This document shows, piece by piece, positions 25,582 to 30,112 of a DNA stretch of 64,000 nucleotides. Position 1 is the first letter of the stretch, and every line of letters starts with the position of its first letter. Origin of the DNA: Syntrophobacterales bacterium (lineage in GTDB: Bacteria; Desulfobacterota; Syntrophobacteria; Syntrophobacterales; Thermodesulforhabdaceae); assembly GCA_026417655.1 (NCBI GenBank), contig JAOACS010000028.1, forward strand, positions 62,001 to 126,000, given 5' to 3'. The translations under genes and the position numbers were made by a program. The notes beneath the pieces were generated by a model. That model ran no database searches, had not been told where the DNA came from, and was given only the letters and a program-made list of their open reading frames with translations.

Positions 25582-27537
25582 TTATACAGAAGCAATTTTT
25601 GCGAGTTCCATTTTTTCAAATAGATTCATAACATCCAGAAGTACCTTAACGTTTCCGTTAGACTTTGCCATGGCCTTTACAAATGGCACACTGACTCCAG
25701 AGCCAAACCTTGGGGGTGGCTCAACATCCCGAGCCTTGATGGTTTCAACATGGGATACCGTATCCACCACTAACCCAAGATGGAAGACCTTTTGTTCCAA
25801 AGGAATTTCAAGAATTACAATGCAAGTCTTCTCATTATACTCAGCCTGTGGCATACTAAGCTTGAGTCGAAGATCTATCACGGGGATTATTCTACCTCGC
25901 AGATTAATAACCCCCTTTACGAAGGAAGGAGCCTGAGGGATTTCTCTAATTGGCATTATACCAACGATTTCCTTTACATTAAGCACATCGATCCCGTATT
26001 GTTGGTTGCAAAGATTAAAGATCAAATATTTTCCTTCCTGTCCAAGAAGGCTTTTTGCAGATATTCGTTTTTCCCTAATATCCTCGTTGATCCTTGCAAT
26101 AAGAGCCTTTACATTAAGCAAGCGAGATGGTCTTGGAATGTAGCTACTCGACTCTTTATAGGCCGCATCACAAAAGCTCATATCTACAAAGGATCCGACA
26201 TCTACATTGAGATCTATAGCCATGTTCTCGCTCATGTAGGAAAGCATCTTATCAAGGGCATCCGTATCTGGTCTTAGATCATCTGTTCTTATACCCTGAG
26301 ACTCCGTAAGAACATTTTTGAGTATAGGCACCTTTAGTCCAAGAACTTTCTGAGGATCTAGGAAAGAGACCCCTATTTCAGCCGCCTTTTCTGGTTTCCT
26401 AGCTATGAAGTTGCCAGCCTCCACCATGAGTCTTACGAATTCCTCTACCGCTTCCCCATGTTGCTCAATAACTTCAGAACGTACCGCCACTAAACAACAA
26501 GGATGATTTTGCCAAACCTCCGATGAGAGGAACACCTGTTCTGCTATCCCCTCGGCTATAGCTTTAGTTCCAATAGGTTCCGCAACCATGAATCCACTCG
26601 CATCGGGATTCATCTTTAAAAACTCCGGCATCTTTACAGGCGGAACCACTTCATAGTAAAAATCGCCCTCTCTACTTCCAGTTATACCTGCCCTTAACCC
26701 CAACTCACTCATGAACATGTGGGAGATAATATGATGAATGGAAAGTTCATGGGGAATGCAGAAAGTTTTATTTCTAAAGAAGTTCTCAAGCGATCTTATA
26801 GGCTCTTTCTTTCTAACACAAATACTTCCATTCTTATGGGCAAGCAAGACAACCCTAATGGGAACATTATAGGCGAAAAGATCCATGGCAATGGGGGCAA
26901 GAATTAAGGCTCCGTCTACCGTTCCCTTCTCCAAGGCCTCCTGTACAGGGTTCCAGCTAGTCATACAAATAGTCTGAAGGGCGGCGAAATGCCTAGGCGA
27001 AACTCTCCCCGTATCTATCAGATACTTTGCCACACCAAGTGTCAAATGATCGGTTATCTGAATGTGAGCAATGTGTAAGATGGGCTTTCCTGAAGCCTCC
27101 AGAACTAGCTCCCTTGTAGGTATTTCATCGGAGACGGTCTGTAAGGTACTCCCCGAAAAGGTCTCCTCCATAACCTTGAGAAGCTCAGCTGGTGCAAAGG
27201 GTTTGGTAATTATATTGCTTGCCCCTGCTTCCGCTGCCTCCACTACTTCTTTTTTCTGAGCTCTTCCGGTTGCGAGAATGAAAGGAAGGTTTCGATACTT
27301 CTCTTGCTGGCGAACCCATTTGAGGAGCTCAATACCCCCCATGTTTGGCATATTCCAATCGCTGATTATTACAGCTACATCCGGATGTTTTGAAAGAAGA
27401 TCTATCGCATGTTCCCCATCGTCGGCCTCAATAACATTATTGAAGCCAAGATCGTTTAGGACCTTACATTCCATCCGTCGAGTTATCTTTGAGTCCTCAA
27501 CTAGGAGAATCTTAACCGTTTTGTCTATCGATGACAT
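25582..27537 (-). CDS. REC - NrtA-like binding domain - CheW fusion protein
   Basis: 651 residues with no signal peptide or membrane helix, so cytoplasmic. Residues 8-127 are a complete CheY-like receiver: acidic pair Glu14/Asp15, phospho-acceptor Asp60 (SDWNMP), Thr90 and Lys112 (TKPF). Residues about 152-430 resemble the nitrate/bicarbonate/sulfonate binding proteins (NMT1/NrtA type), with the hallmark stretch FMVAEPIGTKA and VWQNHPCCLVAVR. Residues about 503-651 are a CheW domain (YGIDVLNVKEIV, VKGVINLRGRIIPVIDLRLKL). The gene begins 6 bases after korB. A periplasmic-type binding fold between REC and CheW is very unusual; it suggests a soluble coupling protein that senses a cytoplasmic small molecule for a chemosensory array. 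The ligand is unknown. Confidence 0.9.
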   Translation of the reverse strand: MSSIDKTVKILLVEDSKITRRMECKVLNDLGFNNVIEADDGEHAIDLLSKHPDVAVIISDWNMPNMGGIELLKWVRQQEKYRNLPFILATGRAQKKEVVEAAEAGASNIITKPFAPAELLKVMEETFSGSTLQTVSDEIPTRELVLEASGKPILHIAHIQITDHLTLGVAKYLIDTGRVSPRHFAALQTICMTSWNPVQEALEKGTVDGALILAPIAMDLFAYNVPIRVVLLAHKNGSICVRKKEPIRSLENFFRNKTFCIPHELSIHHIISHMFMSELGLRAGITGSREGDFYYEVVPPVKMPEFLKMNPDASGFMVAEPIGTKAIAEGIAEQVFLSSEVWQNHPCCLVAVRSEVIEQHGEAVEEFVRLMVEAGNFIARKPEKAAEIGVSFLDPQKVLGLKVPILKNVLTESQGIRTDDLRPDTDALDKMLSYMSENMAIDLNVDVGSFVDMSFCDAAYKESSSYIPRPSRLLNVKALIARINEDIREKRISAKSLLGQEGKYLIFNLCNQQYGIDVLNVKEIVGIMPIREIPQAPSFVKGVINLRGRIIPVIDLRLKLSMPQAEYNEKTCIVILEIPLEQKVFHLGLVVDTVSHVETIKARDVEPPPRFGSGVSVPFVKAMAKSNGNVKVLLDVMNLFEKMELAKIASV

Positions 27538-27543
27538 TATTGC

Positions 27544-28431
27544 TTACTCCCTGTTGTTCTGACAAAGGGTTGGTTTAAAACCATCCAATATCTTTGAAAT
27601 CTCATCGGAAGAAGGTGGTGCAAGCTCTGAAAGGGAGGAATAACCCGTCTCCCTAAAGAAATCCTCTCCAAATATAGAACGATGGGGACCCTTGAATATC
27701 ACTCCTGTAAGAAAGGGTGGATCTGGTTTAAGGACAACCTCTAAAGCTCTATTAAAATCTCCTGGATCATAGTTAGAATCAAGCATTTTCACATTTTGAC
27801 GAAACCAGTCTAGGGGCCTCGAATCCCAGGTAATGCAGGGTTGAATAATATCAACATAGGAAAACCCTCTAGTCATAATTGCTTCCTTTAGGATTTCCTT
27901 TAATTGGCTTCTCTCTAACGCAAAGGCTCTAGCTACAAAAGGCGCCTGGTGTATAATAGCTATAGCTAAGGGGTTAAGAGGTGGCTGAGATACTCCCACA
28001 ACGTGAAGACTACGGCGTTCTCCAATGGGGGTGGTAGGGGATGCCTGCCCCTTCGTTAAGCCATAGATAGCATTGTTATGAACCAAAAGAGTAACGTTAG
28101 GATTCCTCCTTATAGTGTGGATAAAGTGGTTTCCTCCTTCTCCATAACAATCTCCATCACCGGTTGTAACCACGACGGTTAAGTCGGGTTTTGCTACAGA
28201 AATGGCCGTAGCAACCGGTAGAGCCCTCCCGTGGAGTCCGTTAAAGAAATTACATCGCATATAATGGGGAAGCTTTGCAGCCTGTCCTATTCCGGAAACC
28301 AAGCATATCTCATGGGGATATTTTTCTAGCTCCGTTAAAGCTTCCCTTAAGGCATGAAGGATAAGATGGTTAGGACATCCAGGGCACCACTGTATAGGGG
28401 TTTGTATATTAAATTCATTGAGGTCCACCAT
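27544..28431 (-). CDS. korB: 2-oxoacid:ferredoxin oxidoreductase, beta (TPP) subunit
   Basis: 295 residues. The thiamine diphosphate site GDGDCYGEGGNHFIHTIRRN (about 93-112) and the downstream NNAIYGLTKGQASPTT are the hallmarks of KorB/PorB-type beta subunits, and the N-terminal WCPGC motif supplies two cluster ligands. With KorA it oxidatively decarboxylates a 2-oxoacid, most likely 2-oxoglutarate, passing electrons to ferredoxin, or runs in reverse to fix CO2. Its start overlaps korA by 17 bases. No separate delta ferredoxin subunit is encoded. Confidence 0.94.
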   Translation of the reverse strand: MVDLNEFNIQTPIQWCPGCPNHLILHALREALTELEKYPHEICLVSGIGQAAKLPHYMRCNFFNGLHGRALPVATAISVAKPDLTVVVTTGDGDCYGEGGNHFIHTIRRNPNVTLLVHNNAIYGLTKGQASPTTPIGERRSLHVVGVSQPPLNPLAIAIIHQAPFVARAFALERSQLKEILKEAIMTRGFSYVDIIQPCITWDSRPLDWFRQNVKMLDSNYDPGDFNRALEVVLKPDPPFLTGVIFKGPHRSIFGEDFFRETGYSSLSELAPPSSDEISKILDGFKPTLCQNNRE

Positions 28432-30112
28432 AGAAACGTCTCCTTATATCCTTTGCTGTCACAGGCAAACCGTTATAGAAAAGCATCCGCCTCGGTTTAA
28501 TATGGGGTAGCTCTCTGCTTAAGAGACTTGCAAACTGCCCTATGGCATTCTGTTCTATCACTGTAACGGGAATATCGGGTGGAAAATACTCACTAGGAGA
28601 GATTTGTGGAAAAGGCCAGATTTCTGTAAAATGGATCGCTCCTACCCTTTTACCTTCCCCTCGGAGTATCTCTACGGCCTCGAAAATGGAATTTTTTGTG
28701 CTACCCCAGCCGACCAGAATTTCCTCCGCGTCATCCAGGAGGAATCTTTCAGGAGGTTCAATCACCTGCCGAAGTCCCTCTATCTTTCTTAGTCTTTTTT
28801 CAATCATTGGAACCGCTATACCATCAAGGTCCTCCGTTATATGCCCCTCCTCATCATGTTCATCACTGTCGGCTGTAACAAGGTGTTTGCTCTGACCAGG
28901 ATAAAGTCTTGGGGAGATTCCCGATGGAGTAATGGTATAACGTCTATAATCTATAAATCCCTCCGGATCGGCAAAGAAAAACTCGGGCTTAGATGCTTCA
29001 ACATCGAAACCATCTATAGAAAATTGTGAGTCTGCAAGGAACTGATCGGTCATAACAATAACAGGGATCTGATACTTATCGGCAATATTAAAGGCACGAA
29101 CCATCTTATGGAATGCATCGTAGGGATCGGAAGGAGCAAATACCGCCCGTGGAAACTCTCCATGACCAGCATGAATAGCAAAAAGAAGATCTCCCTGAGC
29201 CGTCCTAGTGGGAAGTCCCGTCGCTGGACCGGGTCGTTGAGCAAGAACTATAACAACAGGAACCTCAACCATTCCTGCGAGACTTAAGGCTTCCACCATT
29301 AGAGAAAATCCACCACCGGATGTGGCTGTCATAGCTCTTGTTCCGGCAAATTGAGCTCCTATCGCCATATTGATCGCAGCGATTTCATCTTCAGCCTGTT
29401 CCGTGAAGACCTTACATTCCCTATGCTGAGCTAGAAAGGTAATAATCCCCGTTGCAGGTGTCATAGGATAGGCTGCCATGAAACGACAGCCCGCTCTTAC
29501 AGCTCCGAGAGCGATGGCAGGGTTTCCCGCTATCAGATAGAAGCACTTTGGCCCCTTCTCTAGCCTCCATGAGCAAATACCCTGACAGGACTCTTCAGCA
29601 TAGGTGTACCCGTCCCGGGCAGCCTCAACATTGGACCTGATAACCTTTTCCGATTTCCCGTAAAACTCTTCCTCTATAGCCTTCCGAATGGCTTCAAACT
29701 CACCGCCTATGACCGACCATAGAGCACCCAATGCGATAGTGTTCGCATAAATGGGATTTTGCCATTTGTCCCTCGCTAGTTTTCCGAAGGGAACATAAAT
29801 CTCCGTTGCATCGTCGGTTTCATCCCTTTCCTCTGCAATGATAAGTCCCCCTGGATTTAGCCATGAACGGTATTTTATTCGGGCCTCTTTTCTTAGAGGA
29901 AGTAGGACGTCCGCGTCTCGTCTCGGAGCATTCTTAAGGGAGGTTGAAACCCTAATAGAATAGCTGTTAAGACCTCCTCTTATTCGAGATTCATACTCCT
30001 GCCAAGAAAAAACGGCTAATCCACATCGAGCCAGGGCATCAGAAAAGATGGATCCTACCGTCTGGATACCTTCCCCGGCAGCACCGCCAATTACAACATT
30101 AACGTCCATCAT
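28415..30112 (-). CDS. korA: 2-oxoacid:ferredoxin oxidoreductase, fused gamma-alpha subunit
   Basis: 565 residues: an N-terminal gamma domain (about 3-185, IGGAAGEGIQTVGSIFSDALA) fused to the alpha pyrimidine-binding domain (about 190-400, GNPAIALGAVRAGCRFMAAYPMTPAT and EQAEDEIAAINMAIGAQFAG) and a transketolase C-like end. This gamma-alpha fusion is the KorA layout of two-subunit 2-oxoglutarate synthases. Together with aconitase it fits a ferredoxin-linked TCA segment. Its start lies inside the end of the SMI1-like gene upstream (14-base overlap). Confidence 0.94.
   Translation of the reverse strand: MMDVNVVIGGAAGEGIQTVGSIFSDALARCGLAVFSWQEYESRIRGGLNSYSIRVSTSLKNAPRRDADVLLPLRKEARIKYRSWLNPGGLIIAEERDETDDATEIYVPFGKLARDKWQNPIYANTIALGALWSVIGGEFEAIRKAIEEEFYGKSEKVIRSNVEAARDGYTYAEESCQGICSWRLEKGPKCFYLIAGNPAIALGAVRAGCRFMAAYPMTPATGIITFLAQHRECKVFTEQAEDEIAAINMAIGAQFAGTRAMTATSGGGFSLMVEALSLAGMVEVPVVIVLAQRPGPATGLPTRTAQGDLLFAIHAGHGEFPRAVFAPSDPYDAFHKMVRAFNIADKYQIPVIVMTDQFLADSQFSIDGFDVEASKPEFFFADPEGFIDYRRYTITPSGISPRLYPGQSKHLVTADSDEHDEEGHITEDLDGIAVPMIEKRLRKIEGLRQVIEPPERFLLDDAEEILVGWGSTKNSIFEAVEILRGEGKRVGAIHFTEIWPFPQISPSEYFPPDIPVTVIEQNAIGQFASLLSRELPHIKPRRMLFYNGLPVTAKDIRRRFYGGPQ

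What the first reader, a model, noticed from the sequence alone, without database searches (positions are those of the whole stretch)
25582..27537. Soluble REC - NrtA-like binding domain - CheW fusion
A complete receiver (Asp60, Thr90, Lys112), a periplasmic-type nitrate/bicarbonate binding domain (FMVAEPIGTKA, VWQNHPCCLVAVR) and a CheW domain are in one cytoplasmic chain without signal peptide. Receiver-CheW fusions (CheV) are known, and NrtC-type ATPases show that an NrtA-like domain can work inside the cell, but the three together would be a one-protein sensor that couples a cytoplasmic ligand and phosphorylation to a chemosensory array.
Basis: partly seen in the sequence, partly recalled or inferred. 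Interest (0 to 1): 0.85.

Follow-up and report, generated by a model that had tools for sequence, protein, structure and literature searches.

The report
Chemotaxis adaptor carrying cytoplasmic binding domain
A bacterial protein joins a phosphorylation switch, a nutrient-binding-type pocket and a chemotaxis plug in one intracellular chain, and its relatives keep an unusual histidine/cysteine pocket, which suggests the cell steers by something sensed inside itself rather than outside.

Summary
Window 25582-27537 (minus strand) is one intact 651-aa ORF: CheY-like receiver (10-122), type II solute-binding domain of the NMT1_2 family (150-~466), CheW (503-642), with no signal peptide or membrane helix. 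It is not a sequencing artefact: full-length orthologues (47-82% identity) occur in at least 24 sampled genomes of the same phylum (20 of 395 in an even sample). They form one clade, and the binding domain is the best-conserved part. In some relatives the gene lies beside an MCP, a CheY or CheX. The NrtA-like ligand reading is not supported. The nitrate-contacting Lys269 of NrtA is an invariant Cys348, inside a signature (D163-H164, H268, H345-P-C347-C348) shared with cytoplasmic stand-alone homologues, ECF-sigma fusions and SBPs of CO-dehydrogenase-linked ABC transporters, but not with the other close relatives. The nearest solved structure is 3UN6, deposited with zinc bound. Best explanation: an array-anchored cytoplasmic ligand sensor with CheV-like phosphorylation control, working like CheWS. 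Array docking and phosphorylation are inferred; the ligand is unknown (soft metal or thiophilic compound favoured). New variant of a known kind (CheW-fused sensors). I found no description, though a survey counts 30 unstudied CheW architectures.

The parts
25582..27537 (-). REC - NMT1_2 (type II solute-binding) - CheW fusion, 651 aa
   Evidence: orthologues
27172..27510 (-). CheY-like receiver, residues 10-122, with D15, D60 (phospho-acceptor), T90, K112
   Evidence: closest solved relatives are CheY, E 9e-30; residues invariant in 18 orthologues
26140..27090 (-). cytoplasmic type II solute-binding domain, residues 150-466 (Pfam NMT1_2 150-388)
   Evidence: mean pairwise identity 61%, the best conserved of the three domains
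27046..27051 (-). D163-H164, first element of the pocket signature
   Evidence: 36 of 36 cytoplasmic and periplasmic HxCC relatives; mostly T/C/S and N in 14 non-HxCC relatives
26734..26736 (-). H268, counterpart of NrtA His196
   Evidence: invariant in the HxCC group; alignment
26494..26505 (-). H345-P346-C347-C348; C348 takes the place of NrtA Lys269
   Evidence: reverse complement of 26494-26505 reads cat cct tgt tgt
25612..26031 (-). CheW domain, residues 503-642, keeping the VKEI glutamate (E523) and NLRG arginine (R547)
   Evidence: aligned to a solved CheW, E 8e-28; both residues invariant in 18 orthologues
27544..30112 (-). two upstream genes (2-oxoacid:acceptor oxidoreductase-like by inspection) ending 6 bases before the fusion; probably an incidental operon
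   Evidence: arrangement shared only with the same-genus genome

Best explanation
It is a soluble, array-anchored ligand sensor. The C-terminal CheW domain docks into the CheA/MCP rings; the middle type II binding domain closes on a small cytoplasmic ligand and, through the linkers, changes how CheA is held or activated; the N-terminal CheY-like receiver is phosphorylated by CheA and gives feedback or sets the gain, as CheV's receiver does. The ligand is unlikely to be nitrate, bicarbonate or a sulfonate; a soft metal ion, metal complex or thiophilic small compound fits the His/Cys pocket better. Shown: three domains in one chain, catalytic receiver residues, CheW key residues, binding-domain homology, an invariant pocket, one origin, wide retention, chemosensory neighbours in some relatives. 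Inferred: array docking, phosphorylation, ligand closure, direction of response, ligand class.
For: Domains. Orthologues intact in at least 24 genomes. Binding domain conserved most (61% mean pairwise identity, against 57% REC and 53% CheW; linkers 27%): which speaks against a decaying passenger. One clade for 25 fusions (100/100). MCP directly upstream, same strand, in two sister genera (gaps 77 and 148 bases). CheY directly upstream in L112. Fusion, then CheX, then a signal-less stand-alone homologue in two genomes. Own genome has three CheA, nine MCPs and flagellin. Pocket signature shared with stand-alone, ECF-sigma and CODH-linked homologues. Precedent for a CheW-fused sensor in the array: CheWS, PMC10653840.
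Against: No neighbour is conserved across the family; in the window itself no chemotaxis gene adjoins. No structure of the whole chain: AlphaFold models were poor (pLDDT 52 and 48). HxCC also occurs in other periplasmic SBPs, so the motif alone does not fix a ligand. The zinc in 3UN6 may be a crystallisation effect. No ligand, phosphotransfer or array test could be run.
Confidence: 0.6

Rival explanations
1. A cytoplasmic nitrate/bicarbonate/sulfonate (oxyanion) sensor, with the NrtC/CmpC regulatory domain as the model.
For: Same superfamily: profile matches to CmpC, NrtC and NrtA at E 1e-23 to 3e-16; W195 and H268 match nitrate contacts W102 and H196.
Against: Lys269 is Cys348 and Gly240 is Ala319, invariant in all fusions; the cytoplasmic regulatory domain of CmpC keeps the lysine (HPGK) and this family does not; 3UN6 is far closer (E 7e-41).
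Confidence: 0.12
2. A thiol or redox sensor: the vicinal cysteines C347-C348 react with sulfide, polysulfide or oxidants and no small ligand is captured.
For: Vicinal Cys pair invariant in 36 of 36 relatives with HxCC; hosts related to sulfate-reducing lineages.
Against: D163-H164, H268, G237-S238 and E320 are equally invariant, which a bare thiol switch would not need; the same block occurs in periplasmic transport SBPs.
Confidence: 0.13
3. A CheV-like adaptor whose middle domain is only a spacer or protein-docking module, with no ligand.
For: REC and CheW are intact; no periplasmic partner SBP of this type in the own genome.
Against: The middle domain is the most conserved part and its pocket residues are invariant.
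Confidence: 0.1
4. The middle domain is a catalytic domain (Thi5-like or similar use of the same fold), and the protein links an enzyme product to the array.
For: Thi5 is among the structural neighbours, and some cytoplasmic members of the fold are enzymes (own knowledge).
Against: No similarity to Thi5 by sequence search; homologues serve as transporter SBPs beside permease and ATPase genes.
Confidence: 0.05

Closest known systems
CheWS (Treponema denticola CheW SAM sensor; PMC10653840)
   Same: CheW domain fused to a cytoplasmic small-molecule sensor that sits in the array; the authors call it the first characterised CheW-fused sensor
   Different: Sensor is CheR-like, C-terminal, binds SAM; no receiver. 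Here the sensor is a type II binding domain between receiver and CheW
CheV (CheW + receiver adaptor)
   Same: A CheW domain and a phosphorylatable CheY-like receiver in one chain
   Different: CheV order is CheW then REC with nothing between; here REC is first, CheW last, a 317-residue binding domain between
NrtC/CmpC cytoplasmic regulatory domain
   Same: NrtA-like fold working inside the cell (profile E 1e-23)
   Different: Attached to a transport ATPase; retains the lysine (HPGK) that is Cys here; only a distant relative
3UN6-type SBP of clade-B Ni-CODH-linked NitT/TauT transporters (PMC6344411) and SaoX (NF040735)
   Same: Nearest sequence relatives of the binding domain; vicinal cysteines; proposed by others to carry metal ions or organometallics
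   Different: Periplasmic transport components; SaoX model matched far below its cut-off (25 of 300 bits)
ECF sigma factor - HxCC NMT1_2 fusion (seen here, L126, L170-L172)
   Same: The same type of pocket moved into the cytoplasm and joined to a signalling output
   Different: Transcriptional output; an independent fusion

Membership tests
Pfam Response_reg / CheY-like receiver | Curated score and D/D-D-T-K active site | tested here: met
   86 bits vs 30.2; E14-D15, D60, T90, K112 invariant
Pfam CheW | Curated score; conserved docking residues | tested here: met
   118.4 bits vs 23.5; E523 and R547 aligned to those of a solved CheW
Pfam NMT1_2 (PF13379) | Curated score | tested here: met
   87.7 bits vs 24.7
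CheV | N-terminal CheW directly followed by C-terminal receiver | tested here: not met
   Order is REC-SBP-CheW
CheV | Receiver phosphorylated by CheA, docks in the array | not testable with these tools
   needs biochemistry
NrtA / CmpA periplasmic nitrate or bicarbonate binding protein | Export signal | tested here: not met
   Chain begins with the receiver; no hydrophobic segment
NrtA nitrate site | Contacts W102, H196, G240, K269 | tested here: not met
   W and H kept, G240 is A319, K269 is C348; Q155 equivalent not resolved
CheWS | CheW joined to a CheR-like SAM-binding domain | tested here: not met
   No CheR-like domain
SaoX (NF040735) | Curated cut-off 300 bits | tested here: not met
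   25.2 bits
Metal-binding SBP of the 3UN6 type | Metal coordination by the His/Cys pocket | not testable with these tools
   Homology only: E 7.1e-41; coordinates not available

The most novel reading that the evidence does not exclude
A phosphorylation-controlled chemosensory adaptor that measures a cytoplasmic soft metal or organometallic/thiophilic species with a transporter-derived pocket, one of a set of cytoplasmic sensors (REC-SBP-CheW, ECF sigma-SBP, stand-alone) that share ligand chemistry with CO-dehydrogenase-linked importers.
Probability: 0.3. Interest if true: 0.8.

Novelty: new variant of a known kind. Interest (0 to 1): 0.6.

Why it matters
Chemoreceptors usually look outward, and one characterised CheW-fused sensor is known. 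A widely kept family in which a solute-binding domain is built into the array adaptor, with its own receiver, would show a second way to feed internal chemistry into taxis. The shared pocket signature also ties it to transporters whose cargo is an open question (clade-B CO dehydrogenase clusters), so finding the ligand of this soluble protein could help identify that cargo.

Tried and rejected
Sequencing-error join: rejected, the chain is intact in at least 24 genomes. Conserved operon as a clue to the ligand: the upstream oxidoreductase pair is shared only within the genus. CO dehydrogenase co-occurrence: uninformative, 39 of 40 relatives have a match. AlphaFold of the whole chain and of the middle domain with five sequences: poor confidence; the fold searches on the latter are only supporting. 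Plasmid collection: no record covers 80% of the query. HxCC as a unique ligand mark: weakened, since other exported SBPs carry it. No paper describing the architecture was found, but the supplement of PMC10653840 that lists 30 unstudied CheW architectures could not be opened.

Full report
What is there. The window carries on its minus strand one uninterrupted ORF of 651 codons, 27537 down to 25582. Pfam places a receiver at 10-122, NMT1_2 at 150-388 and CheW at 503-642, each well above its cut-off; an SsuA-family model carries the binding domain to about 456. The chain starts with the receiver and has no hydrophobic segment, so it is cytoplasmic as far as sequence tells.

It is a real family. 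Full-length relatives were found in 16 of 98 genomes around the window's genome and 20 of 395 drawn evenly from the phylum, together at least 24 genomes, at 47-82% identity, all with the three domains in one frame apart from one cut by a contig end. In a tree of the binding domain the 25 fusions used form one clade with full support; the next branch is a pair of stand-alone homologues.

Receiver and CheW look functional. The receiver is closest to CheY, with E14-D15, D60, T90 and K112 invariant in 18 orthologues. CheW aligns to a solved CheW at E 8e-28 with the VKEI glutamate and NLRG arginine in place. The own genome has three CheA loci, nine MCPs and flagellin, so an array to join exists.

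The binding domain. Closest by sequence is 3UN6, whose title says zinc bound; NrtC, CmpC, NrtA and TauA follow. A low-confidence model still gives 3UN6 as best match, Z 11.8 over 139 residues at 3.4 A. Among the three domains it is the best conserved. NrtA binds nitrate by Trp102, Gln155, His196, Gly240 and Lys269 (PMC13204499). Position counting on the alignment gives W102 = W195, G240 = A319, K269 = C348, and the alignment to the CmpC domain gives the histidine as H268. The lysine that hydrogen-bonds nitrate is a cysteine in all 25 fusions, so the nitrate reading fails a direct test, though other ligands of similar shape are not excluded.

A shared pocket signature. D163, H164, W195, G237, S238, H268, E320, H345, C347 and C348 are identical in 25 fusions, two stand-alone proteins, four ECF-sigma fusions and five Tat-type periplasmic proteins; H234 is so in all but one. 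In 14 other relatives from the same search, D163, H164, H234, H345 and C348 change in most rows. These residues thus vary as a block, the pattern expected of one ligand site, although relatedness also contributes and HxCC alone occurs elsewhere.

What the relatives do. Tat-type members sit with a permease and an ATPase directly beside a Ni-CO dehydrogenase gene in two genomes, the arrangement that Inoue et al. reported for clade B Ni-CODH, noting similarity to 3UN6 and proposing metal import (PMC6344411). Another lies in a CheR-CheW-SBP-MCP-PstS-CheA gene row. The ECF-sigma fusions lie beside a molybdopterin oxidoreductase. The nearest permease model in NCBIfam is SaoP and the ATPase is also close to SaoA, of the selenocysteine-assisted organometallic system, but all below cut-off. 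Together these favour a soft metal or thiophilic ligand without proving it.

Chemosensory neighbours of the fusion. An MCP directly precedes it in two sister genera, a CheY-like gene in another genome, and in two more it is followed by CheX and then the signal-less stand-alone homologue. CheX next to it fits a phosphorylated receiver. Most loci, the window included, lack such neighbours.

Mechanism proposed. CheW holds the protein in the CheA ring; ligand closure of the binding domain alters CheA activity; the receiver, charged by CheA, adjusts the response. The nearest working model is CheWS, a CheW-fused SAM sensor (PMC10653840); the receiver resembles the CheV idea with reversed order. Every step after domain identity is inference.

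Novelty. A new variant of CheW-fused sensors. No paper found describes it, but that survey counted 30 unstudied CheW architectures in Pfam, of which this may be one.

Noticed in passing
L126:5057-6505 (+); L170:9415-11031 (-); L171:8993-10423 (+); L172:9187-10797 (-): ECF sigma factor fused to the HxCC binding domain in one chain, next to a molybdopterin oxidoreductase gene: a second, independent cytoplasmic use of this domain.
   Followed up: partly
L125:8238-18166: A Tat-exported HxCC binding protein inside a chemosensory gene row (CheR, CheW, SBP, MCP, PstS-like SBP, CheA, CheB-like): a possible periplasmic counterpart of the fusion.
   Followed up: partly
L165:7901-12424; L166:7848-12371: HxCC SBP with permease and ATPase directly beside a CO dehydrogenase catalytic subunit gene, like the clade B Ni-CODH clusters of PMC6344411.
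   Followed up: partly
L123:8512-10986; L124:5723-8239: The MCP upstream of the fusion has a zinc-binding CZB domain near its N terminus, before the Cache domain, an unusual place.
   Followed up: no
L099 (G244:C1:782616-784028 region): A second, diverged REC-SBP-CheW paralogue with a long acidic/proline-rich linker before CheW in a genome that also has the ordinary fusion.
   Followed up: no
L117:7828-8733 (-); L119:10392-11312 (+): Signal-less stand-alone homologue of the binding domain after the fusion and CheX, followed by a 4Fe-4S protein gene.
   Followed up: partly
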